Assembly (NCBI GenBank): GCA_001632435.1
Contig: KV423929.1
Coordinates: 186,001-250,000, forward strand
DNA: 64,000 nt
Direction: 5' to 3'
From: Calocera cornea HHB12733
Taxonomy: Eukaryota > Basidiomycota > Dacrymycetes > Dacrymycetales > Dacrymycetaceae
A program made the translations under genes and the position numbers. The notes beneath the pieces were generated by a model that was not told where the DNA came from, made no database searches, and worked only from the letters and a program-made list of their open reading frames with translations. This document shows, one piece after another, positions 1 to 21,052 of this stretch (position 1 is the first letter of the stretch; each line of letters opens with the position of its first letter).

Positions 1-987
1 GCCAGGGGTGCCGACCGTCAGCGCTTACGACTGGCGGTCACCCTTTCATGTCTCGGGTCGAGAACATCATTTCCAAGACCTTGCGGCACTTCCTGGAAAT
101 TCAGGACTGGGGCCTTCTGCACGACCCCAAGACAACAACAAAAGCGGTGGGGCGAGGAGAGAAGATACACCTCCGCCTGTTGCTACTACTGAGCCCGTCC
201 ACATGCCGTATTGTAGAATATCGGTGCTGTTGCAAATTGCCACAGTTCCGTCGGAGCTGAGAAGCCCCTTCTGCAACTAGTGTCCAAACATGGGAGTCTG
301 CTGGTGATGGGAGGGCAAGATTGCCGTAAAGTACGTGGCAAAACTCCGTGTATGCTATGTGATAGTATGTCCATTCAGTCCTATTGAGGCGGGTAGAAAC
401 GCGCGGGACAGGTAAGAGCAAGCGATGGGACAAGTAGGCGGGGAGACAGACAGAGTACGGGGATGCTGCACACCACGCTGGTCCTAACGCCGAGAGAGAA
501 ACATGTGCGGAATGGAATTATTTGACTTGCATTCTTAGAGTGACATCTAATCCCGACCCACGCGACTCATGGGACATCCTCACCTGAGTGCATCCAGGTA
601 AGCGTCTGGATACCTGGCTACACACCTTTCATAGTAGCAGGCCGCTGATCTCGGCTTCTGCAGAGTCTCTCTTGAGACGGTATGTACTCATGATCAATTG
701 ACAATGATCCTTGTCGCCGCTACAAACCCTCCATTCCGAAATCCGAATGCAGCAGGCAGAACGGTGTCTTTTCCTGTCCTTGCTGCGGCGGCGAAACTTG
801 CGCTTCTTCCGGTCCGGATGCGACCGCCAAACATGGGAAAGCGTGGCCAAGGTTTTCTTCTGAGGCGACGCAGCTCTGACGACCCGAGAAGGTATATGAT
901 GCACCGCGACAAACATGAGTTGCACCCGACATCAGCATACCCGTGCAGCCGCAGCAGAGCCTAAACCACACACCGTACACCAACAGC
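1..987. other. No recognisable gene
   Basis: Only short overlapping open frames on both strands, none with a domain, signal peptide or splice pattern I recognise. A TATATG sequence near 892 lies about 95 bp upstream of the first peptide gene and may be its TATA element. Confidence 0.5.
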
Positions 988-1146
988 ATGCACTTGTTCG
1001 CCGTCGCGGTCTTTCTGGCCCTCGCCACCTACGCAGTGGCCAGTTCCAACCCACTCGCACCGCGACAGACCCTCGACGCGTGGTGCAATGGCGCGCCCTG
1101 CTTGGGATACAGAGGCGAGCCCGGGTTGGAACAGCGACGAGATTGA
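988..1146 (+). CDS. Putative secreted DAWC-motif peptide 1
   Basis: Single-exon frame of 52 residues. Residues 1-19 form a good signal peptide (M-H then a hydrophobic FAVAVFLALATYAVA core ending in an A-S cleavage context). The predicted mature peptide is about 33 residues and carries the core LDAWCNGAPC with cysteines at positions 33 and 38, so a C-x4-C pair that could form one disulphide. Two more genes in this window (2517-2666 and, on the minus strand, 20855-21052) have the same plan. A candidate 48-nt intron (GTAAGT...CCCTAG, 1158-1205) follows the stop in the 3' UTR. Function unknown. The W-C...G-x-P-C core loosely recalls ascomycete alpha-pheromones, but the loop is shorter and this is inference. 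I chose this start because an upstream in-frame one would bury the signal peptide. Confidence 0.6.
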   Translation: MHLFAVAVFLALATYAVASSNPLAPRQTLDAWCNGAPCLGYRGEPGLEQRRD

Positions 1147-2516
1147 CATACCGTGTGGTAAGTACGAATCGATCGGATGAGGTGAGCCGGATGCCGCACC
1201 CCTAGAAGCATGGGAAAACTGACGACCAACGCGGGGGGGGGGTGCTAGGTCTTTCCTCGGTCAGGGGCATGTTCGTTCGGAAAAAGTACGGTCGTTTTCG
1301 CCGGAGGGGTGTTGGCTGTGATCCACGAAGGTTGGTGATATGAGACCATATTTATTGTGGGGGGCAGTAGGACCTCGTGTAATCAAGTCGTTATAGTGAA
1401 ACAATCCGTCGCAGTCCGAGGTCTTGGATAGGCGAAATGGCGAGGGCGGGGTCTCCGCAAGTGCGCTCATTGTAGGCAATTCCCGAAGGAGCGTTGCAAC
1501 AGATAGGACAGAAGAGACCAGCCCCGGGCTGTCCCTTGATCACTGATCGCCGAAGGTCTGTATCAAGGTGCCTGGCACGCTGCCATGGGCGTCCAGGCAT
1601 GGTGCGTGCGGGTGAAAACTGCCGAGAGATGCAGGAAGCGTCATGGTAGCCGCAATCCCGTTCGTTCTGCCGTAACCCTCCGGGATGTAGGCCACTTTAG
1701 CCGCATTCGCGCAGCTGTTTCTTTCGGTACTACTGATCGAGCTTTTTGTTCCGCTGACGGGAGAACAGCACCGTTGGAGGCCGCGTCTGGGAATGAATGG
1801 TCGACGTTGACGTGCCTGGGCTGATCCTGCGACCGGCCGCATGACCGCATCTGGCTGCAGGACGTACCAAGAGAACATCACGGAGGAGGAGCCTCACCTG
1901 TGCAACGACAAGAAGCCCCCAGTCCCGGAAGCGTGTTTCGGAAACACGGCAATCCCGCCCGCACGTCGTTTTCGGACGATCCGACCCTCTTTCCGGCCTG
2001 TTGAGCTCGGCGCAGCGCGGGCGAGCAAGAATCCCGCTCATTTCGCTGCGTGCTGCTAGAGCCAGAGTGTATGGGCGCGCTCTTGCCGTATAGAGACATC
2101 GCCCCTCCAGAACTGCCACGTCGGTGCGCGATTGTCAGGTAGACAACCTAGTATGGAGAGTGTTGTCCGTAGGCGGTACATAGGGGCGCCGGACGGTTCT
2201 GATCGTCGTCCAGCGGGATGATCGCCAAGGCCCAAGCGAGGGACGTCATGGTGGAGAAGAGAGGTCCATTCAGGCAGAGAGATTTACCCTTTGGCAGCGA
2301 GTAGAACAGGAACGAACACAATATGGTCGACGAGTTCGGAGTCACGCACGTACGAAAATAGTCATCGGGTTGACAGCGCAGACGGCAGACGGCTGTCCGC
2401 CGTCCGGTTGTATAAAGGCTGGATGGAGGCTCGCGAGCGGGGCCGCAGCATCAATCAGCCTTTCGCGTCCAGCTCCAGCGCACAAGCAACGTTGACCTTA
2501 CGGCCCCGGTACATCT
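1147..2516. other. Intergenic, no gene seen
   Basis: Contains the putative 3' UTR intron of the upstream peptide gene (1158-1205) and a TATA box (2411-2416) for the downstream one. The open frames between, mostly on the minus strand at 1540-2119, are arginine- and serine-rich and look like GC-rich noise. Confidence 0.5.
2411..2416 (+). promoter_or_regulatory. TATA box of DAWC peptide 2
   Basis: TATAAA followed by GG, 101 bp upstream of the ATG at 2517. Spacing fits a fungal TATA promoter with a short leader and supports the tiny downstream frame being transcribed. Confidence 0.45.
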
Positions 2517-2666
2517 ATGCGCCTCGCCCTCCCCCTCCAGCTCCTGCTCGTCGCCCTCGCAGCTTCAGCCCCGGTACTAGGACGCGCCGTACCGCCCCAG
2601 CCGGACGCATGGTGTGGCGGCCGGCCGTGCGACGTGCCGCACGTCGAGGGCGGGGCGACGTCGTAG
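2517..2666 (+). CDS. Putative secreted DAWC-motif peptide 2
   Basis: Single-exon frame of 49 residues. A strong signal peptide (residues 1-22, leucine-rich core LALPLQLLLVALAASA) is followed by RAVPPQP and the core PDAWCGGRPC. Cysteines are at 33 and 38, the same positions as in the gene at 988. The nine-residue core DAWCGGRPC is identical to that of the minus-strand gene at 20855-21052, but five of its nine codons differ silently (GCA/GCG, TGT/TGC, GGC/GGG, CGG/CGC and the wobble of the following acidic residue differs as Asp/Glu). This suggests selection on the peptide. A TATA box lies 101 bp upstream, and a 66-nt candidate intron (2729-2794, GTGAGT...ACAG) lies in the 3' UTR. Function unknown; possibly a signalling peptide or small effector. 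An alternative spliced form running past the stop is conceivable but weakly supported. Confidence 0.6.
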   Translation: MRLALPLQLLLVALAASAPVLGRAVPPQPDAWCGGRPCDVPHVEGGATS

Positions 2667-4472
2667 CTCCTGTTCTGCTCCTGTCCCTAGTGGCTATCTT
2701 CAACGGCGCATGATTGCCGCCCGCAAAGGTGAGTTCGGCGCTTTCCCTTTCGGGGGGAGGACGCTGACTCTGACGCTGACTCATTGTGCAACAGCGATAA
2801 CGTGGCGCACAAGGGCGACCGTGATCGATGCCATCGAGCCGGAGCCGGAGCCGGATTGGAATTGTGCACGAGGCGATCAGAGGGTTGTGAACCACAGGGC
2901 CGGATTGGGAAGGTGTGAATTGGAGGGCCGGGATGCCGCGTGGGCGGAGCGGATTTAATTAAGTTAGCGTCTGTGATGGGGGCATAAAGAAAGGGGCCGG
3001 TTGTTGTCATCATTTGCCGGGGAGCATGACGCTGGTCCCGTCCCGTCTCGGGAAGACGCGCGAGTTGGGGTGGGAAGAAGGAGTCATTTTGGAGAACTGG
3101 GTGAGGATGGGAATGGCTGCGCCTGGGCTGTGGATTTGCCAGCGGGCTGGAGGGGCGATCATCAGTGATTTGCCTGGCTGGAGAATGGGGGGATGATCGG
3201 TGGGTGTACAAGTCCGAGGTTCAGCCCGAGCTGCCAGCGGGGGTGGCTCATGCTGCTCGACTGAGTTGGCCGGTGAGGAGCGATGCACTGGCATCGATCG
3301 TACTGTACAGTACTGACTGTTGGTTGCTACAATCTGGGCTGAAGCAGCGGGAGGGCGCCATTCAGCAACTCGAGTTGCAGGAGGGCGACACAAGGGGGGC
3401 CCGTTGTCACCCGAGGGCGTAAGAGCGGTGTCATGCATGCATGATACGGCGAGTGAAGAGCAGCTGGGTTCGGAGCGTTCCCAATTGGAACGGTGCATGG
3501 TGAGCGCATCACGGGCACGGCGGGAAAAGCGGGAGCAACTCGGGGGGCGATGCCGAGCTGTGATTGGACCGGGCGCGCAAGGTCAGCGGGAGGGATTCTG
3601 CCAGCGCAGCATTTTCGATGTGTCACGCCGCTTCACGCCGAGGCCGGCACGCCGAAAGGGGCCACGCCGGCTGACACCCATCCCCCATCCAGTAGAGTAC
3701 AGGCGCATCGCCACCCCACGCAGAGTTGAGTCACCGACCGCGGGTTTGCCCCTGCTCACTTGGTGGCCCCCCCCCCTTCTTCCCCAAGCTCCCCCAGTCA
3801 GCTCTCTGCGGCTCTCTCTTCGGCTAGTCACACACTGGCCATAAACCCCCCTCTCTCCGTCCCTCACCCCTCCCTCTCCTCGTCGCACCCCCCCCGAAGA
3901 AGCGGGCTGCGATATAACTAGGCCAGGCCTCTGCCCCCCGCCCGCTCCCCCTTGAGGCTCAAGAGGGTCAGCCCGCGCGCAGACCGATCCTCGCCCCCCT
4001 CTCCCGCCTCGCCGCCCTCCAGCACAACACTGCCTGCCTCTGCTCTCTCTCTGCTTCTCACGAGTTCACATCCACTAATGCTGCGAGCCACGCCCTCGAG
4101 GGCGCACACGCGTCCATCTGATCCATCCCACCTGCACCCCAGTCCCTACTCGCTCTCCGCCCAAGCCCCGCCCTGCCCTGCTTTGTGATCCACTCTGCTA
4201 GCCTTGCACGCACCACCCAACCAACCCATCCCCCGATCTTGCTCGCTTCACTGCCGAACCGGAGATCATCAGCATCTGTTCTGTACCCACGTTTTACTGC
4301 CGAACTATCACCGAACTCCTTCCTCGACTCTCCTCAGCTCGAACCACCCATTCTCTCCTCCTAGGCGATCGACGGATTCATCCAGACCCCTACTCTACTT
4401 CACCACCCCGAATTTCATATCTCCCTCCCCGACCACCAGAATCCATCCCCTCCCACCCCTCTCCATTTTCCC
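2667..4472. other. Intergenic; pyrimidine-rich leader before the cyclin gene
   Basis: The first part holds the 3' UTR intron of the peptide gene (2729-2794) and no other gene. From about 3760 to 4472 the plus strand is markedly C/T-rich (many CCCCTCTCC-like runs). This is typical of core promoters and 5' leaders of highly transcribed basidiomycete genes and probably serves the cyclin at 4473. A palindromic GTACTGTACAGTAC-like stretch near 3300 is probably chance. Confidence 0.45.
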
Positions 4473-6340
4473 ATGCCGAACCACGCCTCCTTGCCCTCGG
4501 GCGGGCTGCGCGCGGCCCGCCACGAGCGCGGCGGCAGCACGACGATGACCGTCGATAAGGCTGCAGAGGTGCTCGCGAGCGCAGGGGGCGGCTACCCGAC
4601 CCTGCTCCTCAAGGGCAGCTCCATCGGCGAAAAGGAGCCCTCGGCCTCGCCTGAGGCCGAGCGGCGCAAACACGCGCTGGAGAAAGCCATCAGCGCCATG
4701 GTTGTCGACTTTGCTGCCGAGGCGAGCCCGGCCCAAAGACACGCTTCTGTGGTGACTGTGGACGACGCGCCCGGCGCGAGCGCCGAGCCGGCCGTCGCTG
4801 GCAGCAGCGACGACAATGTTGGCGGCCCTAGCCGCATATATGCGGATCAAACACACGACATCTACCTCCCCCAGATGGACCCTAGCCTGCCCGACCCCGC
4901 CGCCGTGCCCGCCACGCCGCGCGAGGCGGAGCTGTATGCGCGGGCTCTCTTCGCCCTCGAGGCAGCCGCAATGTCCCCGCGCATGCGGGGCAAGCAGCGC
5001 GCTACCGACGACGGCGAGAATGCACAGCATGACCAGCGGTTACGCGGCTTGGCGGAGGCGGCCGCGAGCGCGGCTGCGAGTCAGGCGGAGAGGGAGCGGA
5101 CCGAACTCATCGGTGAGTCAGGTGCCATGTCTTACCCCCGCAGTATTTATATCGGAGCATAGGCGAGGTCGCAAAAGTGCTTCGCAAGATGTACCACCTT
5201 GCATGGGAGCGCGACGCGGAGGACGGTGCGCGGCCCCAGGCGGACCCCATCCAAAAGGTGCAGGATATCTGCCAGATCTCCCAGGCCAGTGGCAGCCTCA
5301 GTGACAACCACGCCATCTCGACCGAGACGCTGCCGCGGGTTGCAGAGTCAAAGTCGGAGGGCATCCTCAGCTGGCTCGAGGACATGCACGCGCAACTCGG
5401 CGGCTCCGCTGGCCTGCCCGCGCCCGCTTGGGCGTCCAAGATCGGCGTGGCGCCGGAAGGCGAGAACCTGTACGAGAAGACCCTGGTCGGCGACGCGTTC
5501 GAGCTGCCGACGAAGCTGCCCGCGGACGATAACCCGGAGGACGAGGTTGACCGGGTCTCCCTGACCGCCGAGCTCCCCATCCGCGCGTGGGTCCGCGAGC
5601 TGCTCCGCCGCACCGACGTCTCCTCCTCCCAGGTCAAGGTCGCCGCGTGCTACATGATCGCGCTCCGGCCGCATGTCGCCGCGGCGCTGCAAAAGCGCCA
5701 GGAGGCCGCGCACTCGATCGCGACCAACCAGCCGCTACTGCACTACCACGCCTCGCCGCTCACCTGCCCGCGCCGCACCCTCGTCGGCACGCTCATCCTC
5801 GCGTCCAAGTTCCTTGGCGAGAAGGTGTACAGCATGAAGGCCTGGGCGCGCATGACGGGCCTGGAAGCGCCCGACCTCGTCCAGAGCGAGCAGCTCATCG
5901 GCACTGCGCTCAAGTGGGACCTCTGGGTCGGCGCGAACGTCCAGAGCCTCCGGAGCGACGTGTTCATCCGCACGCTGCTGCAGCAAGTTTCCGCGCCCGG
6001 CGCGCGTCAGCTGGCAAGGCCGTACCCGCAGGAGTTGCTGAACCCTGCGCTGGTTGTGCCGCCCGCTGACCGCGCCCCGCCGGCCCTAGCTCAGCAGCCG
6101 GCCATACCTGCAGTGTACGGCCCGGAACACGCCGCCCCGGAGCAGAAGGACGTTCCCGTCAGCCGGAAGCGTGCGCTTGCCGCTGTCGATGTCGATGCCG
6201 ATGTCGCTGGCTCGAGCCGCCGCGCGCAGAAGCGCAAGGCCGTCGATCGCGGCTCTGGCTCCAATGGTGGGGCCGGTTGTGCCGTCATGATCAAAGCCGA
6301 ACCCATGGACGAGCAACGTCTCTTAACGGAAGCGTACTAA
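4473..6340 (+). CDS. PCL/PHO80-type cyclin
   Basis: Predicted join(4473-5112, 5163-6340), 605 residues, with one 50-nt intron (GTGAGT...ATAG) restoring frame as ELIG|EVAKV. The N-terminal 350 residues are low-complexity. A single cyclin box lies at about residues 350-470, with the hallmark LILASKFLGEKVYSMKAW and ALKWDLW helices. The spacing and 'LASKFL...YSMKAW' signature resemble fungal Pho85-associated (PCL/PHO80) cyclins, which bind a CDK and direct it in the cell cycle or in nutrient responses. The C-terminus is Pro/Ala-rich with a basic RKRALAA-like stretch that may be a nuclear signal. A related cyclin follows at 11750-13841. Which CDK it partners cannot be told from sequence. Confidence 0.8.
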
Positions 6341-7833
6341 CGCAAGTAGCTCTTTTTTCTCGCACCTTCTTCCACTTTCTTCGAATCTCTGTATAACTGC
6401 TGATACCCAGCTCTCGTCTCGTCCCCGTCCATTCCGCATTCCGGTTGGCCACGGCGTTTCGTGTCGCGGCCGCTGTAAAATAACCCCCTTTCCCGTAAAG
6501 ACTGCTCTTTCCCTCAGGTGTCCAACCAAGTAGCCGTACCTACCCCAGTTTGTCGCTTCTCCTTTTCCGTGCAAACCCAAACGAATATGTGTTCTTCTGG
6601 ATGCGTTCGTTCCGGCCTACCTTGTGCCCGGGTTGTTGGACTATGCCGTGCTTGTGGATTTACGTGTAATAACAGATTCAGTCTCAGTCATCCATTCATC
6701 CAAATCAAGCTTAGTTTTTACCGCATACAGTACTAGTGCGTGTATTCGTAGCCTTACGCGTGGAATCACAATACACGGTCTCTGTTGACCAGAGCGTTGT
6801 GTTGAATAGAACAATTGTGCTTTGCTGGCTGTGTATGATGTTGCTGTTGACAATACGATGTGCTGACGTGGCCCTCGCCCAATCACGACCGGGACACGTC
6901 GTGCGGCGTCATGACTAGGCTCGCTTACGGGCCGGGATCGCCGGGATGCACGGGAAATCCGAGCCTCCTTCTGTTCCTGGTAACCACGGCGTCTGCCAAC
7001 ATCTCGCCAAGTCGCCAACAACTGCTGGAAGGTGCCACCCCTGAGCCTCCACGTCCCGTTGCGGAGGGCACTTGCGTGTCAGTTCATTGTTAGCCCGGCG
7101 CAGGCGCTGCGTAGACCACCATCGTACCTTCCAGCGGGGCGCACGGTCCTCTGGTGGGGGCCGCGCACGCCCGCGCGGAAGCTGCGAGCGCGTGGCAGGC
7201 CGGGAATGGGCGCGGCACAGCGTGTGCCGCAGGGCGCTGACTCGACGCGCGTCAGGACCGGGGGCGATGTGTGGCCGTCTTATTCGCCCGTCCGGGTTCG
7301 CCGGGACTCCAGACAGCGCGCCGGAGGCAGATGTGGCAATTCATGCTCGACAACGAGATGCGATAACGACTTTCCCGCCCAAGGTGCCAGGGTCCATGAA
7401 AGCAGGATGGGGCAGCGACGGTGAAAATGGTAAACCCGGTCGAGCGGTGGCCCACGGGGTCCCGCTGCATGGTCCGACCGCGCACTGCTTCCGCTACGAC
7501 GAGTAATCGGTTCATAAGCCGCGTACACGTCAAGTCATACTATCCCGTGCCCCCTCTTGCACATTTGCATCCCCCCCAAGCAGCATCACCCTCTGTCTCG
7601 CCGTGCTCGACGTCAGCAGCGACAGAGAGTTACTCACAAGCAAGCGGACACAGACTCGCATACCGTTTGAACGGTCTGTCGAGTTTTACACCCTTAGCCA
7701 ATCTGTGAGTTGCTGTCTTGTCTCTCTCCCACCTCGGCTAGCGACAGCAAGTCGGGTGTGGAGCGCTGCTGCGGACGACCTGCACATGTCGGCTAGCCGA
7801 GCCACTTGACAGCGAGCAGCCTTCTGAGGCGGG
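6341..7833. other. Intergenic, no gene seen
   Basis: 3' flank of the cyclin and 5' flank of the bZIP gene. Small open frames here overlap each other on opposite strands and show no family resemblance. Confidence 0.5.
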
Positions 7834-9078
7834 ATGTCCGCCGCTTCGATCAATGGCTACGGCCTGAGAGCGATGTCGGCAGCATCTGGCATGGTCTACC
7901 TTGCACCCGGCCCGAGATCACCAGTGCTTACTCGTGGCGGCAGTCCCCGGTCGTCTTCTCGGCCGGCATACTCAGCAGCAATTCAGCCACTCACCACCAC
8001 CTCTTCCCTCACCCCAAGAGCCAATGGCATTCTCCTCGAGTCCAAACGGAACGCAGTAAATCAGTCCGTCCCGAAAATCAGCATACACCCCGCCTACACC
8101 AACACCCAGAACGGTCATATCACCCATGTCCCACGGTCAGCAGTCACAACAAACTCTCTCGGTCTCTATGGGGCCGGGAACACTCCACCCCCCTATGCCG
8201 CCATGATGGATACACACACCATTAACAACACCCCAAGCACCCCAGCAGCCACTGGTCACGCCAACAACGACGGCTCATACATCCTCCGTACTCCGGTACC
8301 CGCATACAAGGTACCATCTACCGATCTCAACCAGTCCCTTGAGAGTCTCGCGTCCGAATACACCCAGCGCCTTGGTCAATCTACGCCCACGATGTTCCCC
8401 AACTTTGCAGCAGCCGAGTGGTTCCCGTCCGAATACGCTTCGACCGAGAACACCACCGAGCCAGCTAGCAGCGTTTGTCCCGCCTCGCCGCCATCCTCCA
8501 CCGCTACGCAAACACTCGTCGACACCTTCGCATTCCCTACGATGTACGCTCCCGACAGCGGCTTCGACCCGTCCGCATTCTTCGATCCCCAATCCGCATC
8601 CTCCTCTACCGCTCCTGCCTGCATCTTCACCGACGCAGACCTCGCCTTCCTCACCGGCTTCGGATACCCCGCCGCCGATCTCCCTTCTGCTCCCACCACT
8701 GTCTCCGTCGAGCTGCCCCAGATGATGCCTTTCGAGGACATCGTTGGCAAGGGCAAGGCGCGGGAGCAGACACCCGTTGCGCCGCCGGCGCCGCGTAAGC
8801 TCGCACCCGCCCCTGTGGCTGGTCTGAAGCGCGCCGCGTCCGAGATGGACGGAGCGGAGGAGGAAGACGACCGCCCGGTCAACTCTACACGCGTGATGTC
8901 AAAGCGCGAGCAGAACAGGCTCGCCGCGCAACGCAGCCGGGCGAAGAAGCTGGAGGAGCGCGAGACGCTGGAGTCGGAGGTGAACGAGTTGAAGGAGAAG
9001 ATCCGTCTCCTGGAGACGGAGCTGCAGACGAAGAACGCGGAGAACCGGGTACTGCGTGAGTACATGGGACGCAAGTAA
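7834..9078 (+). CDS. bZIP transcription factor
   Basis: Uninterrupted frame of 414 residues. The first 340 are Ser/Thr/Pro-rich with acidic and aromatic patches typical of activation regions. The last 60 form a bZIP: a basic region with KREQNRLAAQRSRAKK (invariant N-x7-R present), then leucine heptads in LESEVNELKEKIRLLETELQ. Proteins of this type bind DNA as dimers in the nucleus. The basic region is of the general AP-1/CREB kind and no specific orthologue is recognised. The start at 7834 is the first ATG; a second in-frame ATG at 7873 is possible. It lies between two cyclin genes, and a second, Gcn4-like bZIP is 6.5 kb downstream on the other strand. Confidence 0.8.
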   Translation: MSAASINGYGLRAMSAASGMVYLAPGPRSPVLTRGGSPRSSSRPAYSAAIQPLTTTSSLTPRANGILLESKRNAVNQSVPKISIHPAYTNTQNGHITHVPRSAVTTNSLGLYGAGNTPPPYAAMMDTHTINNTPSTPAATGHANNDGSYILRTPVPAYKVPSTDLNQSLESLASEYTQRLGQSTPTMFPNFAAAEWFPSEYASTENTTEPASSVCPASPPSSTATQTLVDTFAFPTMYAPDSGFDPSAFFDPQSASSSTAPACIFTDADLAFLTGFGYPAADLPSAPTTVSVELPQMMPFEDIVGKGKAREQTPVAPPAPRKLAPAPVAGLKRAASEMDGAEEEDDRPVNSTRVMSKREQNRLAAQRSRAKKLEERETLESEVNELKEKIRLLETELQTKNAENRVLREYMGRK

Positions 9079-11749
9079 AGACGAAAGGACACGACCGGTA
9101 CATCCGGCAAAGATCACCCCCACCACGGACTGAAGGCTAGAGACTAGACTCTTCACGCCCAAAGGACCCAAAGCGGCTCAGCAACCAGCGGTGGCACCTC
9201 CACCCTGGGCACCGCACCACTGTCGGCGCAAAGCGTGCGCACGACCACCATTTCCAGCTAAGGAACTACTACCCCCAACCACGTCCACTATTCCTGTGCG
9301 CCTCGCGCCTCGTTCCACTGTGTACATATCAGCCATTTAGCTGTCTCTTCGATTTTCGTCTAAGGGTTCGACTGCCACGACAACCACTCCCAGAGCCGGC
9401 CCCTCCCCTCCCTCACTCCCTACTCCCCGACACACCACTAACCGCGGCCGGCGCCGAGTCACTAGTCTAGTACGCTCGTGACATGATTCGTTAATGGACC
9501 AACGGGTCATGTTGTATCTCTAGTAGTCTGTAGCATTCGCAGGGGGGAGTCGTAGTAGTGCAAATGCATCTTTTGGTCCTTCTCATTCAAGTGCCACACT
9601 GCGAGTCTGACGGCTGTCCGCAACCAGGGTCAAACCCCGTAGCCCTGGAGGGTGCCATTGGGCGAAGCCTGCGAAATAACTATTGGAATCGTATTACCCT
9701 TCGGGACAGCTCTTGGAGTACTTCCCGCCGATCCGGGTTTTCAACCTCCTCCAACAATGGCATTGCCTTCATATCAGACCGCCCGCCCTGCCTCCTTTGC
9801 AGCCTAACATCCCAAAGCGGTGCATGCGCAGTGAGCAGTGAGCAGTGCGTGCCCTCCCGGCACAGTCAGGCAGTGTGCCAGAGCACGGTGTTTCCTCGCC
9901 CCCAGGAGTCGTCACGTCTCGCGGGTCACATCTCGCCCCCTGGGTGGCATAAATAAAAAGCATCGTTGGGGAACAGCAACTCGGTTTCCCGTCTCCTGCC
10001 CCGGCTGCTCTTGTACAGTTCTGCTCGGGAATGCCTGCGTGCGACTGTACAACTCGACTGGGGCTGAGGCAGCCCGATCGGCGGACGCCCGCTCTGTCGA
10101 TCCATTGATCTGGATCTGGGCTGACGCCTGTCCGACCACTCGCATCTCCCGTATCCTGGCCCGATCCTGTCGCACCTCGCTCGAAGCTCGGCGTCTGCTA
10201 TTCAACGCCCGCCGATGGTCGCTGATGAGACTGTGGATGCTCGGCCTCCCGCGCTGCGTGGCCGACCGTCGCGGAGCGCACTGGCGCCAAGCAAATCCAG
10301 AGAAGACGGGACGACGAGCTGGAAGGCTGGAATGATCCCAGCACCAGTACTACTGTGTCCTCGTTATTCTGGCGCTCGCGAGTGGCCGCCGTTTCGCCCT
10401 GCCTCGGGGAGCGCTCGGGCTCGGTCTGCGCGCGGGCCCGGGCAGGGTGCGAGTGGGAGAGCTCTCCGGTGCTTCTCCTCACATCGCGGAATGCGCTCAC
10501 ACTGGCCCCCTCCCCTGCCTGCTGCGGTTCGACTTTCGGAATTTGTTTCACGGCTGCGGAATACCACCGCAGCCCAGGGCTCTGCGCTCCGTGCTCGTGG
10601 GAACTGCTCGACCAAAGGAGCCGAAGCTTCTCTTGTGCGCTCGCACGAGCAAGCCGAGCTAGATGTCGACATGATGCACAAAGTGCAGGAGTTGTGCAGC
10701 CATACGCGGACTAGCTGACGCCGCTTGCTTGCATGGCCGCTAAGCGAGTTAGTATTTGGAAGCGGGCCTTCCCCAGAGGGGCCGCATGGGCGGCACTTGC
10801 AAGCGGCCCTGATTGCGATCAAGGGCTTCGCCGATATCAATATCACAAAGCTGCAAGACGATTGCAGTTTAGAGGTGGTATTCCGAACGATGACGAAACG
10901 CCACGCATCGAAATATTCGGGGTTCGCCAGGACGCCGATTGTCATTGCTGATGCAATGTATGCCGACATGGGGAAACACGAGCGGGTGTCCGATCTGGTC
11001 CTGTATAATCCACGCTGACACGGGCCCCGCGGGTTGTGCTGCGCAGAGCCGAGGACACGGCTGCCGCGCTCGGCACGTGATGACACAGAGGTATTCAGTC
11101 CGCCGCCTACCGCCTATGTCCCTATGCTTGCTGTCGGGCCAAGTCACGGCACGCCCCTTTATCGCGCTGTAAACCCCTCTCCCCCGCGCCAGCGGACATG
11201 ATTCGCTCTCTCTCTCTCTGGTTCTCGTCTTTGGTCGGCCTACTTCGTGCCTGACCTAGTCATCGCATTCGCATATCGGAACTTTGACAATGGCGGCTAC
11301 CGGCGGCAACCTCTGCGGGCTTCTGGAAAATCTGTAGCTCTGACCGCACATCATCCAGCAAAACACCCGCCCGTGCACTCACAGCAATCGTTTCACCGCT
11401 ACTCCATCGATCCCTCGGACGACGACCGAGCGCTGCACGCCCTCCCTAGCGCGTGCCTAGCTAGCTGCTGCTTGTGCCATCACCGGCTGTCCGAGTGAAT
11501 TGTATACCGGCCCTAGCTCGGCGCTGGCTTCGTGGCTTGCATATAGCTCGGACGCTTTTATAACTGTCTACAAAATATTTTGATGCTTGTGAATTTTCTC
11601 GAACGACGTGAAACTCTCCCGAGACCCTCCGACCTCCAGACGGCTGGCATCCACCTCTCCTCACCCTCTGTCCTCTTCACCGCTCACGATCGGTTCGTCT
11701 GGTCGCGTCTGGCGCCATCGATACGGGATCGGCTCATCGATTACAGAAC
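9079..11749. other. Long intergenic region, no gene recognised
   Basis: 2.7 kb without a convincing gene. A 240-codon minus frame (10364-11086) and a 97-codon plus frame (10725-11018) overlap antisense, and neither resembles a family I know. A TATAA sequence near 11560 (in TTTTATAACTG) sits about 190 bp upstream of the next cyclin ATG. A CT dinucleotide run lies near 11208-11220. Confidence 0.45.
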
Positions 11750-13841
11750 ATGCCGAGGGGCCAAAGGTCCAAGGAGGCGCCGTTCCCATCGCCAGAGACG
11801 AGCTCGAGGCGCAGGAGCGCGACGAACAGCGCGTTTACCGAAGAGCGCGTCTCGTACGCAAGAGTCGACGACGATATGGTCATTTCCCCTCCTCCCGGCC
11901 CGTCTAAACCATCGATCCAGTCTCAACCCGCAAATGGGCACTCTCCATACGTTGGCGCCCGACCGACCGACCGGATATCGGTGCCTGAAACGAGCTCGAC
12001 GTCGCGCGCCTACGAGCCCAGCTTAACTCCTGCCTTATCCGCAAGTCGAGGCTTGGCATATCCCAACGCATCTCCGCCCACCTCGTTTTCCTCCCCAAGT
12101 CGCAATGTATCTCAAGCATATCAGAGTCGATCTATACCCCAACAGCAATTTCCAAATCAGCCATATGTACAACACCGTCGATCGACTCCTTCAACGCCAC
12201 CGGTTCGACTGCCATATCTTCCACCTAGTTCCCGCGGTTCCACTAGTCCCTCTGCAGCACACTCCGTCTTGCCCGGTCCGTCGCGATATGGGGCTACCTC
12301 ATCATCCGACGCTGGGGGTCGACCCGGACATACTCGTTTCTCTGGCCCCGAACTTGCGCCGTTGACTGGACGTGGACCAGCCTCCGCTGGACCGTCCAGG
12401 CCTCGCGACTCCAGTACTCGACTTCCTCCCATCACAACACTGCTGTATTCCAACGACTATACTCCTCCGTCTGTGCCTCCTTCGCTCCCTCGGAAACGTG
12501 TTTCCATCCCGGAGCTCATGAACGATCCACCCACCGCCTCAACCGATTCTCCCTTACAGCCTGTTACCCCAGCATCTGCGCGCCCTGCTCAGCATCAATC
12601 CTCTAAAAAGGATCCCATACGGCCAGAATTCCGGCCCCATGATCCATTCGCGAAGAAGGTTCTTGAAACGGAATTCGAGGATGGCCCACCGGCTCGGTTG
12701 TGGCCACCGATAACAGAAGAAGAACGTCAACATTGGCGTGCCACACGGAGTCAGAAACCGCGCCGATCTAGTACCGCAGCACCTGTTGAACCGCCGATTC
12801 CCGATGAAGGCAATGTATTACCACCTGAAACACCCTCTGCGCCCCCGCGACTAGCCCGGAATATACCATCCATTCCATGGCATCGCGTTGAATACGACTC
12901 CGAATTCCTCCAAGTGGTCAAGCAACGTTTGGCCCTCACCTGGAGACGATTCAAACGACCATCAGAAGACTTCCCACACTTGAGGACTACAGATGGCCTG
13001 CGGTGTGAGTCTCTCGTCCTCTCTGAGAGGTTGAGTAATGGTGGAACCACGTTGCTGATCGTACTCTCCAGTCACGGTCCTGGATGTTTTGCACTATCTG
13101 TACTTCGCACAAAGACATCCCAAGAGTTCAGGTGCTGCGCCACCTCCGCAGGCAGAACCCGGCACCCGAATGCCGTACATCAAACCCGAACCCGATCTCG
13201 ACGATGATCATACCCTCCTGCATTCCCATGATCCTCCGAGACCGCCGAATAAAGACGAATACTTTTTCTGGCTTGGTGCACTCGTTTACCTTCCGCGCGA
13301 CGCAAGACGTCAGCTTGACTTAGCAACATATCCGACTTCGACCCGAAACCTTCAGTACAACCCTGCTCAGCGACGGCAACCACATGAGCTCCTCCGCGAA
13401 TCATTACTGATGTGGTGTTTTGACATCCTGGTCAGAGCAGATCTCAGTGATAGAGCTCTTACCGCGATAATCGTATACTTGGTTTGCCTGGAGCCTGCGA
13501 TTCGGGAAGATCTTGCTCAAGCGGTGCACACGAAAGCAATGCGAATTCGGTCTCCACCGCTGTCCTCTTGCCAGATCGCCTTGGTCGCATGCTGTTCCCT
13601 GGCCACCAAGTTCGAGGAGGAGAAGCCTTATTCGCTGAAAGCGTGGTCTCGTATAACGACTTTGACTCTACTTGATCTGCTCGAATGCGAACAACACATC
13701 TTCAGCACGCTGAAGTGGAATGCCTGGTCGCTGTCACTCGTGAAGGGCATTTTTGGCATAACGTTGCAGTATCCGACCGACGACCTGCCTCCTCTTCCTT
13801 CGGACATTCCTCCAGTGAAGCAGGAAGAGCCGGCTCAATGA
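11750..13841 (+). CDS. Second PCL/PHO80-type cyclin
   Basis: Predicted join(11750-13004, 13072-13841), 674 residues, with a 67-nt intron (GTGAGT...CCAG) joining LRTTDGLR to FTVLDVLHY in frame. Residues 1-400 are a long Ser/Pro/Arg-rich region with many SP and TP sites, expected CDK or MAP-kinase targets. The cyclin box is at about residues 520-645, with LVACCSLATKFEEEKPYSLK and STLKWNAW. These match the same positions in the cyclin at 4473 (LASKFLGEKVYSMKAW, ALKWDLW), so the two genes are paralogues. It probably binds a Pho85- or Cdk5-like kinase. The long tail and the intron placed ahead of the box distinguish it from the first copy. Confidence 0.8.
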
Positions 13842-15576
13842 CCATACTCACAACGATCTGCCGAGCATCGGCCGATCAACAGCTCTGGATCATTGCTAGT
13901 GGCGGTGGTGTTTGGAACCCTCTTTAGTTCTCCCGGAAGTGATGCATGAGTGGTTCTCCACATCACGCCCTTTGGGCTGTCTTCCCTTGTATTCTGTCAG
14001 AATCTACTGCGATACGTACTGGCACCACGGTGATTTATCGACCTGGTCAAAACGGTTGTCTGCTGCATCATTCGTCATTACGCATCATCGAACTTGCAGC
14101 CCCCGCATCAGATACTGAATACAGCAATTTCAGCTGCGTACAGACAGTCCTGATGGTGCCCTATCCTTCTGCCGTGGGAAACATAGCGAGCACTCATTGA
14201 GGGGGGGGTTACCAGTTCATCGACGAAAGCTCGAATTGTAAGCTGCTTCCGTGGTAGTGCGTGTGACTACTCTACTCCAGGGGAGTTGACAATCATGTTG
14301 TTGTCCAGGACGAATGAAAAAGTGTATTGCCTACCACGGTTGACAAGACACAGTACAGTGCATCAGTAATCGACGCCACGCACCGGGCCGCTTGCCCAGC
14401 AGCGCACATCACCAATTTCGACGGGCGCTACGGCTAAGTCATCCTCCGCCCCCCGGCCGTCCGCGAGGTTAAATCTCGCACCTTTCCTTTGTCGCGCACA
14501 CGTATTAATGCGCAAGCGAGCGGAAGCATGATCCCACGCGACTCGGGAGTCAGGAGCGGGTGGTGGAGGGAGGGAGCCTGACGTGTGGAACTGTTCACGC
14601 CCCGGCCCTTGCGTTCACGTGGTGAAGCGAGCTCACCGGGGGGGCATACTGTGTAAGAAACCCAGGGGCGTGACTTTCAGTACATTAACAATGCTCAACT
14701 CCTCGTGCCAGATCGCCGCCACGACCAGCCGAATTCCGTCAACGAATACACACGGTGTTACTAAATGGCTGACAAAGTCCCCACGCACGCGAATGCACGC
14801 ACGAACAGACACAGCCTGATTCTTCAAAGCGATTTCATTGTTATTATATAAACATCACGATTCACGCCAAGGAATTTTTTTGGGGTTTAATCATTTTAAA
14901 GACTTTCCAGTTGCGCCTTCGTGGCGATCAACCGCTGGACGGAGGTGTGGTGCGCGAGACGCTAGTCCCGTTCATCGGCCGGCTTGCAGTCCCCATCCGC
15001 CTTTGGCGGTTCTGGGCGCCAAGCGCTGTCTGGCCTGGGAGACTATCTACAAATACAATTACAAGCCTCGGCCCTTTCCTCCCTGGACCCGCGGCGCGCT
15101 GCTGCACACGGAGTTTGGGACGGGCACGAGAGGCACATTCGATCTTTCGAGGCAGAAGTAGCAGAACGCAAAAGATGAGAACGCGGTCATCGAGGAGAAA
15201 GAGAAGCAGGCAGGAGTAGCAACAAAGAATATTAGGACTACATTGTAGTGCTTGACGCGGCGCGTCGTGAGCTGGAGTGGATTCGATTTGGGTTTGGATT
15301 TGATTGTGGTGTGTGGTGCCGTCGCAGTCGTGATGTGGTGCTGGTGTGGTGCGTCGAAGTGGTGCGGGTGCAGGGGCAGTGGAGGAGGTGGCGTCGAGAG
15401 ACTTTTAGAATCGGAGACCGATAGACCAGAAATAATAGGGAAATTGGGAACAGGCGAGAAGGCGCGCGAGTGGGGCGTCCGCGGCATTCGTCATCGTCGT
15501 CTTGGGTCTCCATCGTCAACCCTGCGCTCCGCTTCGTACGTGCTGCGGCACGGGACTGGGCATGCGAGTTGCGCAT
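13842..15576. other. Intergenic between convergent genes, no gene seen
   Basis: Lies between the 3' ends of the cyclin (plus) and the bZIP (minus). It holds both 3' UTRs and no recognisable gene. A lower-GC patch with TTATTATATAAAC lies near 14840. Confidence 0.5.
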
Positions 15577-16827
15577 TTACAGCCCGTCGGGGTACCTGAG
15601 CTCCTTGAGGAGGCGGATCTCGACATCGCGTTCGCGGATCTGGCGTTCCAGATCGGCGATGCGGCTTTCGCGATCGGCGATGGTGTGCTCGAGCTCGTCG
15701 GTGTATGCGGCCTTCCTCGCGCGGCTCTTGCGCGCGGCGAGGGTGTTCTTGGCACGCTTGAGCGCGACCTTGTCCTTGATGTTCTTGACGAGCTCGGCGA
15801 TCTCCTCATCGTCTCCGCTCTCCTCCTCCTCTTCGTCGTCGGCCTCGAGCTTGCGCTTGAGGCTCGTCGCCTTCGCAGCCGGGAGGACCTTCTCGAAGCC
15901 CTTAGGCAGGGGCTTGGCGGCGGTGCGGCTGGGCCCGTTGTAGTTGCGGGGCTGGATGGGCGCGTCGAGCGGGATGCGGCGGCGGGACTTGGCCGCGCGG
16001 TTGGGCAGCGCGCGGATCGGACGACCGTCCTCGTCCTCGAGGTCGGGCTCCGTCTTGATCTCGATGTCAAGGGCCGGGGAGGCGGAGGAGTCGTCCTCCG
16101 GCGGGCCGGGGGCAGCGTTGCCCATCATAGGCGTGCCGGTGGATGTCGGGTTCGCGGTGGGTTCAGCCGACGGCTGGACGGAGGGGTTGCTGGCGGAGGA
16201 GTAATTGCCGCCTCCGGCGAGCTCGCTCGTGATGGGGGATGGGACGGGTAGGTCGAACGCGCTGGGCGGGACGTAGGTAGGGGTGCTGTCCCTCCAGATC
16301 TCGTCGGGGGTAATAGTGACTGGCTGTTCGATGGATTCGAGCGTCGCACCAGACGGGTACAACTGGGAGAGATACAGTTGAAGTTGCGAGGCGAGGGAGG
16401 ACGAGTCAGTGACACCTGGAATGTAAGGGAGCCAGGGGCCCCCGAGGTGAGTCATACTGTCGTCTGAAGAGCATCCGCTCTCGCACGGCGACGTACCCTG
16501 GCCCGCGCTTGTTCCAGAAGCATCCACGATGCCCGTGCTCTCCGAATCGCTCAAAAACGACAGGTCGAAGATGTCGTCGAGCGTCATCTCCCCCGCTTGC
16601 GGGGCCTCGTGGCCAGCGCGCATGTCGGCGTACGACCCGAACAGGCTGGCCAGCTCCGACTTGACGGCCGTGCTGGCTGGCGCCTGCTCATCTGGCGAGG
16701 TCGGGGAGGATGTTTGCTGCTGTTGCTGACCGAATCCGCCGAGGGTGATGCCCGCCTGAGCCCATTGTGCCGTCGAGTGCGTGAGGGTGTTGTTGTAGTT
16801 GAAGAACGAGTTGGCGTATTGCGACAT
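15577..16827 (-). CDS. Gcn4/Cpc1-like bZIP transcription factor
   Basis: Intronless frame of 416 residues. The C-terminal 64 residues are a bZIP. The basic region LKRAKNTLAARKSRARK closely follows the yeast Gcn4 pattern (KRA+NT-AAR+SRARK), with N-x7-R intact and a zipper in DELEHTIADRESRIADLERQI. An acidic DDEEEEESGDDEE tract precedes it, and hydrophobic-acidic patches (MTLDDIFDLSFLSD) resemble an activation domain. By homology it would activate amino-acid biosynthesis genes under starvation. It is transcribed toward the second cyclin. The leader has upstream ATGs and a TGACTC site (see the regulatory entry). The Gcn4 assignment rests on the basic region only. Confidence 0.75.
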   Translation of the reverse strand: MSQYANSFFNYNNTLTHSTAQWAQAGITLGGFGQQQQQTSSPTSPDEQAPASTAVKSELASLFGSYADMRAGHEAPQAGEMTLDDIFDLSFLSDSESTGIVDASGTSAGQGTSPCESGCSSDDSMTHLGGPWLPYIPGVTDSSSLASQLQLYLSQLYPSGATLESIEQPVTITPDEIWRDSTPTYVPPSAFDLPVPSPITSELAGGGNYSSASNPSVQPSAEPTANPTSTGTPMMGNAAPGPPEDDSSASPALDIEIKTEPDLEDEDGRPIRALPNRAAKSRRRIPLDAPIQPRNYNGPSRTAAKPLPKGFEKVLPAAKATSLKRKLEADDEEEEESGDDEEIAELVKNIKDKVALKRAKNTLAARKSRARKAAYTDELEHTIADRESRIADLERQIRERDVEIRLLKELRYPDGL

Positions 16828-17273
16828 CCAATGAGTCGGGGCTGGCTGTGTGCGCGGCTGCGAGTGCGTGTGGGATGAGTCGAGCGATGTCGATCGACGA
16901 TGTGTGGCACTCGAGGGGTATAGGGGGAGGAGTCAGAGGGCGGCGGGGGGGGATGGGATGGTGGTCGAGCAAAACGCTCCTGAGGGCCTGACGGGGCCGC
17001 GTCGCGGCTTTCATGTAGTCAGCCGCGCGCCCTCGGCCCAGATGACTCCCCAGTAACCCTGGCGGACCCAGTTCTGCACCGCCCCACTACCATCGGTAAA
17101 ACCCTCCCGCTATGGTAGCAGGGGTCCCTGTGACTGCTATGGCGGCTATGGACATGTTGGCAAGGTCCGTTCTAGCTGCAAAGAGTAATGAAGTCAAGGC
17201 TGATGGATGATCACAGGGTGGTCATGTGGTTCTTGGGGCAGTGTGCAGACATCTAAGCCCTTCTTAAAGTCAT
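16828..17273 (-). promoter_or_regulatory. Leader/promoter of the Gcn4-like gene with upstream ORFs and a GCRE
   Basis: On the minus strand an ATG at 17014 opens a 108-codon frame ending at 16688, inside and out of frame with the main CDS, so it would hinder initiation at 16827. Further up, an ATG at 17273 opens a six-codon uORF ending at 17253. A TGACTC core (Gcn4-type response element) is at 17043-17048. Upstream-ORF control and autoregulation are known for GCN4 and cpc-1. Whether this leader reaches 17273 is unknown, and a 6-bp site can occur by chance. Confidence 0.35.
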
Positions 17274-18798: not shown

Positions 18799-19614
18799 AT
18801 GGCACGGTGAGCCCTACAGCGTCCCCCTCCCCCCGCGCCCATGCTGACGTAGCACCCCCGCAGCGTATTCTGCATCCCAGGGATCATCCTCCTCCTCTTC
18901 GCCCTCGCCCTCTCCATCCTCGTCACAATCTCCCTCCCCTCCATCCACCCATTCGACATCGCCCGCGTCGACTTCCACGACGGTCTCGGCACAATCTCCA
19001 ACGCACCCAACAATGTACAGGGCGAGTTCAGGTTCGGCATATGGGGTTACTGCTACCAGACCGCCACCACATCCGGCTTCAACTGCCTCCACACAGGCCA
19101 CGCCTACTCGGTCACCTTCGCTAACCAGGCCGGCGGGAGCGAGACCGTCGGCGCGAGCTGGACACGCGGGCTCGCAGTGCACGCCGTAGCCTGCGTCGTC
19201 GTCGGCATCGCCTTCCTCCTCTCCTTCAGCGAGCACGTTACGGTCACCTTGTGAGTGCCTCCCGTACCTCTAGGGCCTGTCCGTCTTGCTAACGTCCCAC
19301 ACAGGATCGCCTCCCTGGTCTCCTTCCTCGCCGCGCTCCTGACGCTCATCGCCTTCGCCTGCGACATTGCCCTCTTCGCGTGGGTCAAGCACCAGATGTC
19401 CAACCTCGACATCTCCGAGTCCACCTACCCAGGGCCGGCCTTCTGGATGACCCTCGTCACCTTCATCCTCCTCCTCCTCGCCGGGTGCACAGTCTGCTTC
19501 GGACACCGCAGGGAGCGATCCGCCCGTGGGGGCGGCGACCCGGGGTACACGATGGGCCGCGTGCCGTGGTGGCGCAGGCAGCAGACAAAGATCCGCCCTA
19601 CCGCGGTGGCCTAA
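18799..19614 (+). CDS. SUR7/PalI family tetraspan membrane protein
   Basis: Predicted join(18799-18806, 18864-19250, 19305-19614), 234 residues. The first exon is only 8 nt (ATG GCA CG), followed by introns of 57 and 54 nt with good GT/AG borders. Four hydrophobic segments are visible: residues 4-27, about 105-130, about 133-155 and about 175-195. The loop after the first segment has the family signature around RFGIWGYCYQTATTSGFNC, with two spaced cysteines. SUR7/PalI/Rim9 proteins sit in the plasma membrane, in eisosome patches or in the pH-sensing Rim pathway. Sequence alone does not separate these roles. The C-terminus is short and basic. A MITE-like element lies 104 bp downstream. Confidence 0.75.
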
Positions 19615-19718
19615 GCCCGCTTCCCGCCCTGCCCCGGCGTTCCCGTGGCCTGCTACCGGCGCCGCTCGCTCTTCCCTTGCCCGCCTGCTTCCGTCCCGAG
19701 AGGACACGATATCACATA

Positions 19719-19812
19719 ACGTAGATTATCACCTCACGGATCAACTCAGCTCGCGGATCACCCGCATAGCCACACATGCTCGTTATTTTGTGCGCGCAAT
19801 TTCTCCGTCAAC
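19719..19812 (+). repeat. Left terminal inverted repeat of the MITE
   Basis: Begins ACGTAGATTATCACCTCACG directly after a TA, and matches the reverse complement of 20389-20482 at 90 of 94 bases with no gaps. Confidence 0.9.
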
Positions 19813-20388
19813 ACAATGCCTGGTGCATTCCAGAAAAAGCAAGGGCTTTAGGAGGGCCAGATGCTTCATTTTGATGTTTTGATCCATTGCTTTTGTGTTG
19901 TTCCTAAGGCCTGTATGACTCCAGTTATGACTGCACAGCCGCAATTGTAGAATCTCGCTTCTATGGCAGATATCTCATGCAACAATGCCAATCTATCCTA
20001 TTCAGAGTACAAGGTACTTATTTAGTGCATGATCAAGCTGGGTGCTGCAGGGATTTTGATGGATCAGCCTGGTTGTGGAGATCTGCCAATCAGGGGTGGG
20101 CAGGGGTCATTTTTAGTCATAACTCCAATACCAGGTCTCTCCAGCCAAATCCCTCTTGCACATAGCTAATCCATATACTGAACAGCTGCCTTGCACTCTG
20201 GAGTAGCCAGATCAGCAGTGTTGCACCAGCTATCAGTCTTAGAAGCAAGATTGCACATATGTGGCTGTGTAGCACACAACAGGTCATAAAAGCCTTAGGA
20301 GTAAGATAAAGGGCTAGCCTAAAAGATAAACTCAATGCCTCTAGTCCCTCTGCAGCCCTTGGTACTTTCTGGGAAGCATTTGCATCAT

Positions 20389-20482
20389 GTTGACAGAGAA
20401 ATTGCGCGCACAAAATAACGAGCATGTGTGGCTGTGCGGGTGATCCGCAAGGTGAGTTGATCCGTGAGGTGATAATCTACGT
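20389..20482 (-). repeat. Right terminal inverted repeat of the MITE
   Basis: Ends GGTGATAATCTACGT directly before a TA. It is the inverted partner of 19719-19812; three of the four differences are transitions. Confidence 0.9.
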
Positions 20483-20854
20483 TAGCATACACGGCGTTTT
20501 ACCACTTCTACACTTACTCGCCTCCCGCTCGTCGTCATAATGTACTGCCCACCTCCTGGCAGCAGGCCGGCGAGCGGGGCGTACGACCGACACTCTTAAT
20601 GACGAAATGCCATTGTCATGGTTTTCATTTTACATAATGCGCCGTACCCCGTTCCTGCGTGAGCTTCAGCATCAGCTTCCCTCAGAGACAGGCTCCAGCC
20701 TAGAGAGGGTGGAACTCACCTGCGCCTACTGTACGGCCGGCAAGTACCCATGCGTGTTCAACTGCTGTCGAAGAGCCCCACCCGCCTGAGTACAGTACCC
20801 AGGAGTCGAGCCCGGCAGGCCCGCGCCAAGCAGTAGGTCGAATGCCCTCCAGCT

Positions 20855-21052
20855 TCAGCGGACTGCGGAATGCCACGGCTCGCACGGGCGCCCGCCGCAC
20901 CACGCGTCCGGGGGCCCCGGCGGCGGCGGGGGCGGCACGACCGCGGCAGGCTGAGCTGAAGCGGGCCCGGGGAGCGCGACGGCGACGAGCGTGAGCGTGA
21001 GCGTGAGCGTGACGGGGAGGGCGAGGGCGATGACTCGGAAGTGCCAGTGCAT
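20855..21052 (-). CDS. Putative secreted DAWC-motif peptide 3
   Basis: Single-exon minus-strand frame of 65 residues. The hydrophobic segment (residues 6-27) contains a LTLTLTLT run encoded by a CTCACG hexamer repeat and ends in an A-S-A cleavage context near residue 33. A proline-rich linker (PPPPPPGPP) precedes the core DAWCGGRPC, with cysteines 52 and 57, and the protein ends EPWHSAVR. The core is residue-for-residue the same as that of the gene at 2517 but uses different codons. A candidate 65-nt 3' UTR intron (20719-20655, GTGAGTTC...GCAG) parallels the 66-nt one of the gene at 2517, which also starts GTGAGTTC. A degenerate second copy of the core-coding DNA may lie at 20731-20760. Function unknown. 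Confidence 0.6.
   Translation of the reverse strand: MHWHFRVIALALPVTLTLTLTLVAVALPGPASAQPAAVVPPPPPPGPPDAWCGGRPCEPWHSAVR

What the first reader, a model, noticed from the sequence alone, without database searches (positions are those of the whole stretch)
988..21052. A family of tiny secreted DAWC-x-G-x-PC peptides, apparently undescribed
Three genes (988-1146 plus, 2517-2666 plus, 20855-21052 minus) encode 49-65 residue proteins with a signal peptide and the core DAWC(N/G)G(A/R)PC near the C-terminus. Two cores are identical in protein (DAWCGGRPC) yet differ at several third codon positions, as expected under purifying selection rather than recent copying. In the first two genes the cysteines sit at the same positions (33 and 38). 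Outside the core and the signal peptide they differ freely. W-C...G-x-P-C loosely recalls ascomycete alpha-factor pheromones, but the C-x4-C loop is shorter and basidiomycete pheromones are normally lipidated CAAX peptides. A short disulphide-looped signalling peptide, effector or RiPP precursor is plausible.
Basis: partly seen in the sequence, partly recalled or inferred. Interest (0 to 1): 0.9.

Follow-up and report, generated by a model that had tools for sequence, protein, structure and literature searches.

The report
Alpha-pheromone-like secreted peptides in Calocera
A jelly fungus carries at least seven tiny genes, five of them close together, for secreted peptides with a short two-cysteine loop that look built like yeast-type alpha mating pheromones, although its phylum is thought to lack the matching receptor; they may be an undescribed set of fungal hormone-like signals.

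Summary
In detail: three short signal-peptide ORFs carry DAWCxGxPC, far above chance. The window lies in Calocera cornea HHB12733 (Dacrymycetes), not an Agaricomycete. The family is larger: two more genes lie just left of the window (four in tandem, plus one at 20.9 kb) and two on other contigs, one with two cores. That makes 7 genes and 8 cores; five of the seven gave no database protein.

My reading: DA/EA is the last Ste13-type dipeptide before the mature peptide, as in ascomycete alpha-pheromone precursors. The product would begin WC: WC-x-G-x-P-C-x-x-aromatic, often then a basic residue. Membership fails: one core in 6 of 7 genes, a dibasic site after 1 of 8 cores, no W after the second cysteine, no Ste2 found (inconclusive). 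They are probably not the mating pheromone: no CAAX end, and STE3 with a CAAX-type ORF lies on another contig.

Best explanation: secreted, disulphide-looped signalling peptides of alpha-pheromone type with a non-Ste2 receptor. The family and its signal-peptide-like leaders are well supported by sequence; processing is inferred; receptor and function are unknown. No relative outside C. cornea was found, a weak negative.

The parts
988..1146 (+). gene m3: 52-aa precursor, core DAWCNGAPC at 1075-1101, then LGY-R
893..900 (+). TATA-like box of m3 (95 bases before the ATG)
   Evidence: sequence only, no expression data
1158..1248 (+). candidate 3'UTR intron of m3 (GTAAGT..CTGAC..TAG); other donors and acceptors are possible
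2517..2666 (+). gene m4: 49-aa precursor, core DAWCGGRPC at 2604-2630, then DVPH
2411..2418 (+). TATA-like box of m4 (106 bases before the ATG)
2729..2794 (+). candidate 3'UTR intron of m4 (GTGAGT..CTGAC..CAG)
20855..21052 (-). gene m5: 65-aa precursor, core DAWCGGRPC at 20882-20908, then EPW-H; proline-rich pro-segment; signal peptide contains a coding microsatellite; no TATA-like box found
20655..20719 (-). candidate 3'UTR intron of m5 (GTGAGT..CTGAT..CAG)

Best explanation
The genes encode precursors of small secreted signalling peptides built like ascomycete alpha-pheromones. The precursor enters the secretory pathway through its signal peptide. A basic-residue protease (Kex2 type) and a dipeptidyl aminopeptidase (Ste13 type, cutting after X-A or X-P) trim the leader up to the invariant alanine. 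The peptide then begins W-C and ends a few residues after the second cysteine, often at an aromatic residue before a basic one (WCNGAPCYPY, WCNGVPCLPY, WCNGAPCLGY, WCGGEHCIDY). The two cysteines close a six-residue disulphide ring. The peptide acts on a cell-surface receptor of the same fungus, not Ste2, in vegetative or developmental signalling rather than as the mating pheromone. Shown from sequence: the family, its signal-peptide-like leaders, the conserved core, and matches to a Kex2-type P domain and a DPPIV-type domain in the genome. Inferred: cleavage sites, disulphide, receptor, function.
For: Seven genes and 8 cores in one genome. The residue before W/Y is A in 8 of 8 cores and the one before that D or E in 7 of 8, N in one. 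Ste13 sites are XA/XP with X often D or E (PMC9769878, passages; PMC10569646, passages). m1 has VP-LP-TP-EA and m7 has GA-VA-NA directly before WC. Y, W or F stands 3 residues after the second cysteine in 6 of 8 cores; in 4 of these K or R follows and in one H. The two-core gene has a dibasic RR after the first core, and the deposited protein P0001 equals my spliced model letter for letter. Ascomycete consensus is given as WCXXGXXCW, e.g. WCYRIGEPCW (PMC3068285, passages); WCTWKGQPCW in Fusarium (PMC7329813, passage). Putative single-copy alpha-factor precursors are reported in nine Erysiphaceae (PMC10569646). Alpha-type precursors are reported in basidiomycetes, including QSWGGCGGRGTPCW (PMC6339444, passages), and peptides that likely come from Ste13 trimming were detected in Agaricomycetes (PMC9769878). 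DPPIV_N and P_proprotein matches are in the genome. All 5 cluster genes (m1-m5) pass a strict 3'UTR-intron scan that 1.1% of 4000 random window segments pass.
Against: Only 1 of 8 cores is followed by a dibasic site; m4, m7 and the second core of m6 have no aromatic-plus-basic end, and m5 has only H. XA/XP in register beyond the last dipeptide is not clearly enriched: 14 of 24 against 8 of 24, Fisher p = 0.15. No STE2 match (no control rang, so inconclusive). No relative outside C. cornea. No shared promoter motif above control. No 7-TM gene recognised near the cluster, but only 27 of the 73 ORFs listed went to Pfam, with a crude hydropathy scan over C16:160001-250000. No 3'UTR intron found for m7. 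No expression or peptide data were available.
Confidence: 0.5

Rival explanations
1. Secreted peptides that are not trimmed to WC: the whole segment after the signal peptide (about 25-35 aa in most) is the product and DAWCxGxPC is its functional core, acting as a signal, adhesive or surface peptide.
For: D/E at position -2 is itself nearly invariant (7 of 8), as for a functional residue. Few dibasic Kex2 sites.
Against: Sequence outside the core varies freely in length and composition, as in cleaved leaders. DA/EA matches the known Ste13 dipeptide.
Confidence: 0.25
2. Antimicrobial or toxin-like peptides used against competitors in wood.
For: Small, secreted, probably disulphide-looped, multigene; wood-decay habit (recalled).
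Against: By eye the core is not strongly cationic or amphipathic and has only two cysteines. No curated family: Pfam gave nothing for six members and two hits below cut-off (E 0.1 and 0.14) for m3; NCBIfam nothing for the five scanned; best solved structure E 0.71, matching the leader.
Confidence: 0.1
3. Enzymatically modified RiPP of dikaritin type (UstYa-dependent ring).
For: The only UstYa match found in the genome is on the same contig, C16:276888-277109.
Against: It lies 70-93 kb away, and the 8 kb fetched around it holds no family core. No repeated Kex2-flanked tyrosine cores in the seven precursors.
Confidence: 0.05
4. Chance ORFs or recent copies without function.
For: Five of seven genes gave no database protein.
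Against: Statistics, third-position divergence within subgroups, conserved gene layout, and two members deposited as predicted proteins.
Confidence: 0.03

Closest known systems
Ascomycete alpha-pheromone precursors with two cysteines (Fusarium, Trichoderma)
   Same: Signal peptide; XA dipeptide directly before the mature peptide; mature peptide starts WC and has G-x-P-C (WCTWKGQPCW, WCYRIGEPCW)
   Different: Loop two residues shorter than in those two; no W directly after the second Cys; one core per gene in 6 of 7; dibasic site after 1 of 8 cores; Ste2 reported only in Ascomycota (PMC12842992, PMC13308352, passages)
Basidiomycete Kex2-processed repeat proteins with STE13 signature (e.g. Trichosporon oleaginosus QSWGGCGGRGTPCW; Pleurotus AADW peptides)
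   Same: Alpha-type precursor layout in a basidiomycete; G-x-P-C in the Trichosporon peptide; receptor unknown
   Different: The 2019 survey kept proteins with at least three repeats between KR/RR/KK sites; these precursors have one or two cores, so it could not list them
Basidiomycete mating pheromones (CAAX lipopeptides)
   Same: Short precursors in small multigene sets (recalled)
   Different: No aliphatic CAAX end in any of the seven (m6 ends CGDI, a cysteine at that place that is the second core cysteine); these have signal-peptide-like leaders; a CAAX-type ORF lies beside STE3 on another contig, C41
Cryptococcus Qsp1 quorum-sensing peptide
   Same: Secreted short peptide signal of another Agaricomycotina fungus
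   Different: Qsp1 is imported and acts inside the cell (PMC7537855, start of abstract in a search listing); no sequence comparison was made here

Membership tests
Ascomycete alpha-pheromone precursor | N-terminal signal peptide | tested here: met
   7 of 7 leaders with best 10-mer hydropathy 2.27-3.4; hydropathy only, no SignalP available
Ascomycete alpha-pheromone precursor | XA/XP (STE13) dipeptide directly before the mature peptide | tested here: met
   A before W/Y in 8 of 8 cores, D/E before it in 7 of 8; longer spacer not significant, p = 0.15. The start of the mature peptide is itself inferred
Ascomycete alpha-pheromone precursor | KR/RR/KK after the mature peptide | tested here: not met
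   RR after 1 of 8 cores; single K or R after an aromatic in 3 others
Ascomycete alpha-pheromone precursor | Several repeats of the mature peptide | tested here: not met
   one core in 6 of 7 genes, two in m6
Ascomycete alpha-pheromone precursor | Consensus WCXXGXXCW (PMC3068285) | tested here: not met
   W/Y-C-x-G-x-P/H-C, no W after the second Cys in 8 of 8
Ascomycete alpha-pheromone precursor | Ste2 receptor in the genome | tested here: inconclusive
   PF02116 no match, but no control genome rang; STE3 was found by the same tool
Kex2-processed repeat protein (KEP) | At least three repeats between Kex2 sites | tested here: not met
   one or two cores per gene; criterion from PMC6339444
Basidiomycete CAAX mating pheromone | C-terminal CAAX with aliphatic residues | tested here: not met
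   0 of 7; m6 has a cysteine at that place but ends CGDI
Dikaritin-type RiPP | UstYa gene in the cluster | tested here: not met
   only match 70-93 kb away; the search scores single exons, so others may be missed
Any of the above | Mature peptide and disulphide observed | not testable with these tools
   needs mass spectrometry

The most novel reading that the evidence does not exclude
A basidiomycete lineage runs a private multi-peptide hormone system: cystine-looped alpha-pheromone-type peptides, diversified by tandem duplication into several related peptides, read by a receptor class other than Ste2, possibly one of the basidiomycete seven-helix orphan families (DUF6533, one exon of which lies about 3 kb from one peptide gene). 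This would mean alpha-type peptide signalling exists in Basidiomycota without Ste2.
Probability: 0.2. Interest if true: 0.85.

Novelty: new variant of a known kind. Interest (0 to 1): 0.6.

Why it matters
Basidiomycota are held to mate with lipopeptides and to lack Ste2, yet alpha-pheromone-like precursors have been reported in them with no known receptor or role. This family is small, clustered and chemically easy (about ten residues with one disulphide), so it would make that open question directly testable. It also points to a blind spot: single-core precursors of about 50 aa can escape both gene annotation (five of seven here gave no database protein) and repeat-based surveys.

Tried and rejected
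Tried without result. STE2 in the genome (uninformative control). Three protein-database searches with family, masked-core and broadened-core profiles (1140, 72 and 2 candidates scored): only two C. cornea proteins came back (one of them). The tool needs several shared words and a matching length, and m1-m5 of C. cornea itself did not come back, so this is a weak negative. A shared promoter motif: nothing above control. UstYa association: the single match is 70-93 kb away among other genes. Solved structures: best E 0.71, unrelated. A protein search of the genome with m3 found only m3, m2 and m1.

Pattern hits dropped by inspection of the unspliced frame, splicing not explored: 3 of 8, 10 of 16, 10 of 17 and 2 of 3. 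I saw in none of them a short ORF with a signal-peptide-like start before the motif.

DUF6534, proposed elsewhere as a receptor class (PMC12842992, passages), has 6 matches, none on the peptide contigs. DUF6533 has 57 exon matches, 18 on C52, 5 on C16, 5 on C112 and none on C102. The nearest one to a peptide gene is about 3 kb from m7, but on C16 the nearest is 57 kb away, so this stays a lead noticed after the fact. A dense hydrophobic stretch at window 54-57 kb on the minus strand is antisense to long open frames on the plus strand.

I did not predict a structure; for a ten-residue peptide it would not be informative.

Full report
What is there. The three ORFs are real as described. In the window WC.G.PC occurs three times, all in these genes, against 0 in 60 Markov sequences of equal length. 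The window is G000:C16:186001-250000. A protein search returned CALCODRAFT_499931 of Calocera cornea HHB12733, whose contig length equals that of C102 and whose letters equal my spliced model of a related gene there.

The family. Pattern searches of the whole genome found 5 copies on C16. m1 (core 183556), m2 (185379), m3 (window 988) and m4 (window 2517) are head to tail over 5 kb, and m5 (window 20855) is inverted 18 kb further on. m7 is on C112 (67836) and m6 on C102 (cores between 106080 and 105921, minus). m6 carries two cores, DAWCGGEHC and DAYCNGAPC, joined by splicing a 52-base GT-AG intron. The deposited 76-aa protein has the same splice. Patterns read backwards as controls gave 7 matches against 16 for WC.G.PC and 7 against 17 for the wider pattern. 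By inspection 6 of the 16 and 7 of the 17 are true; in the rest I saw no short signal-peptide ORF in the unspliced frame. A Y/C/F variant gave 3 matches, one of them m6 again and two rejected. A protein search with m3 found only m3, m2 and m1. m1-m5 gave no database protein in any of three searches. Counts of the genome search are lower bounds by its own statement.

Are they genes? All seven leaders are hydrophobic at signal-peptide level. TATA-like boxes stand 81-106 bases before the ATG in m1, m2, m3, m4 and m6, at 149 in m7 and none in m5. m1-m5 all pass a strict 3'UTR-intron scan that 1.1% of 4000 random window segments pass; m7 does not, m6 was not given to it, and a looser scan found none for m6 or m7. 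Among six genes (m6 left out) core divergence is mainly at third positions in close pairs: m4/m5 4 against 0, m1/m3 5 against 0, m2/m3 2 against 1. The 8 pairs between the NG and GG subgroups differ about equally at both (3-5 third, 4-5 first/second). m2/m3 dN/dS is 0.05/0.52 in the core, 0.29/0.71 in the leader and 0.59/1.28 in the tail, on few sites. Apart from overlap of the fetched stretches, only short DNA similarity remains between loci: 35, 131 and 32 bases. I infer that the copies are not recent.

How it likely works. The residue before W/Y is A in 8 of 8 cores and the one before it D/E in 7 of 8. In alpha-pheromone precursors XA or XP dipeptides, X often D or E, precede the mature peptide and are removed by STE13 (PMC9769878 and PMC10569646, passages seen). 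m1 (VP-LP-TP-EA) and m7 (GA-VA-NA) have longer in-register runs. Over the family the enrichment beyond the last dipeptide is 14 of 24 against 8 of 24, p = 0.15, so it is not shown. After the second cysteine, 6 of 8 cores have Y, W or F at +3; K or R follows in m1, m2, m3 and m6 (RR in m6) and H in m5. Predicted products are about ten residues with one disulphide ring. The genome has matches to DPPIV_N (C31, two exons E 4e-42 and 3e-41, plus two weak ones elsewhere) and to the Kex2-type P domain (C88, E 5e-21); that these are the Ste13 and Kex2 homologues is inferred.

Compared with known kinds. The ascomycete consensus is given as WCXXGXXCW (PMC3068285, passages), and the Fusarium graminearum peptide is WCTWKGQPCW (PMC7329813, passage). 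These peptides share W, C, G, P, C but have a loop two residues shorter than that example and no W after the second cysteine. Alpha-type precursors in basidiomycetes were reported in a survey of 250 secretomes that required at least three repeats (PMC6339444, passages), and peptides that likely come from Ste13 trimming were detected in Agaricomycetes (PMC9769878, passages). Ste2 is reported only in Ascomycota (PMC12842992; PMC13308352; passages). So the kind is known and the family is new to the literature I could search: five core strings gave 0 papers, and a search for Dacrymycetes, C. cornea, secreted peptide and pheromone (at least three of four terms) gave one paper, the GPCR survey. Supplementary tables could not be read.

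Probably not the mating pheromone. STE3 matches lie on C41:145089-146099, and a 38-aa ORF ending CVVA lies about 0.6 kb away (L064, 4485 minus), the usual basidiomycete layout. None of the seven precursors has an aliphatic CAAX end; m6 ends CGDI, where the cysteine is the second core cysteine.

Receptor. Unknown. Of 73 ORFs of 120 codons or more listed over C16:160268-231760, 27 were put to Pfam. I recognised ABC-transporter, bZIP and cyclin domains and housekeeping genes, no 7-TM gene. A crude hydropathy scan of C16:160001-250000 showed no further dense stretch that stood up. DUF6533 is a basidiomycete family; one member, SNB1, has seven predicted helices and is needed for fruit-body patterning (PMC10949477, passages). 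C. cornea has 57 DUF6533 exon matches, one at C112:64636-64773, about 3 kb from m7; other ORFs lie between them. I give this as a lead only.

Verdict. Real family, high confidence. Secreted alpha-pheromone-like signal, moderate confidence. Not a member of the ascomycete alpha-pheromone or KEP classes by their defining features. Novelty: a new variant of a known kind.

Noticed in passing
window 5117-9075 and 11612-16932; L066 7069-8151: Three bZIP genes and at least one cyclin gene (a second cyclin-like ORF at 5117-6337 has no Pfam match at E 0.001) lie around the peptide cluster, as if a bZIP/cyclin block had been duplicated.
   Followed up: partly
G000:C16:160963-162444 (-) and C16:171978-177724 (+): ABC-transporter membrane and ATPase segments on opposite strands 6-21 kb left of the peptide cluster.
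   Followed up: partly
G000:C41 near 144485 (-) and 145089-146099 (+): STE3 receptor with a CAAX-type pheromone precursor ORF (ends CVVA) about 0.6 kb away: likely part of the mating-type locus of C. cornea.
   Followed up: partly
G000:C112:64636-64773 (+): DUF6533 membrane protein exon about 3 kb from peptide gene m7; 57 DUF6533 exon matches in the genome, 18 of them on C52.
   Followed up: partly
window 20988-21012 (-): A hexanucleotide-like microsatellite encodes the TLTLTLTL stretch of the m5 signal peptide.
   Followed up: no
window 21855-22550 (+): A CinA-type (PF02464) protein gene in a fungal genome, next to m5.
   Followed up: no
G000:C16:276888-277109 (+), L068: Only UstYa match found in the genome; beside it is a frame with repeated cysteine-rich segments and long Gly/Ala- and Ser/Thr-rich runs, 70-93 kb from the peptide genes.
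   Followed up: partly
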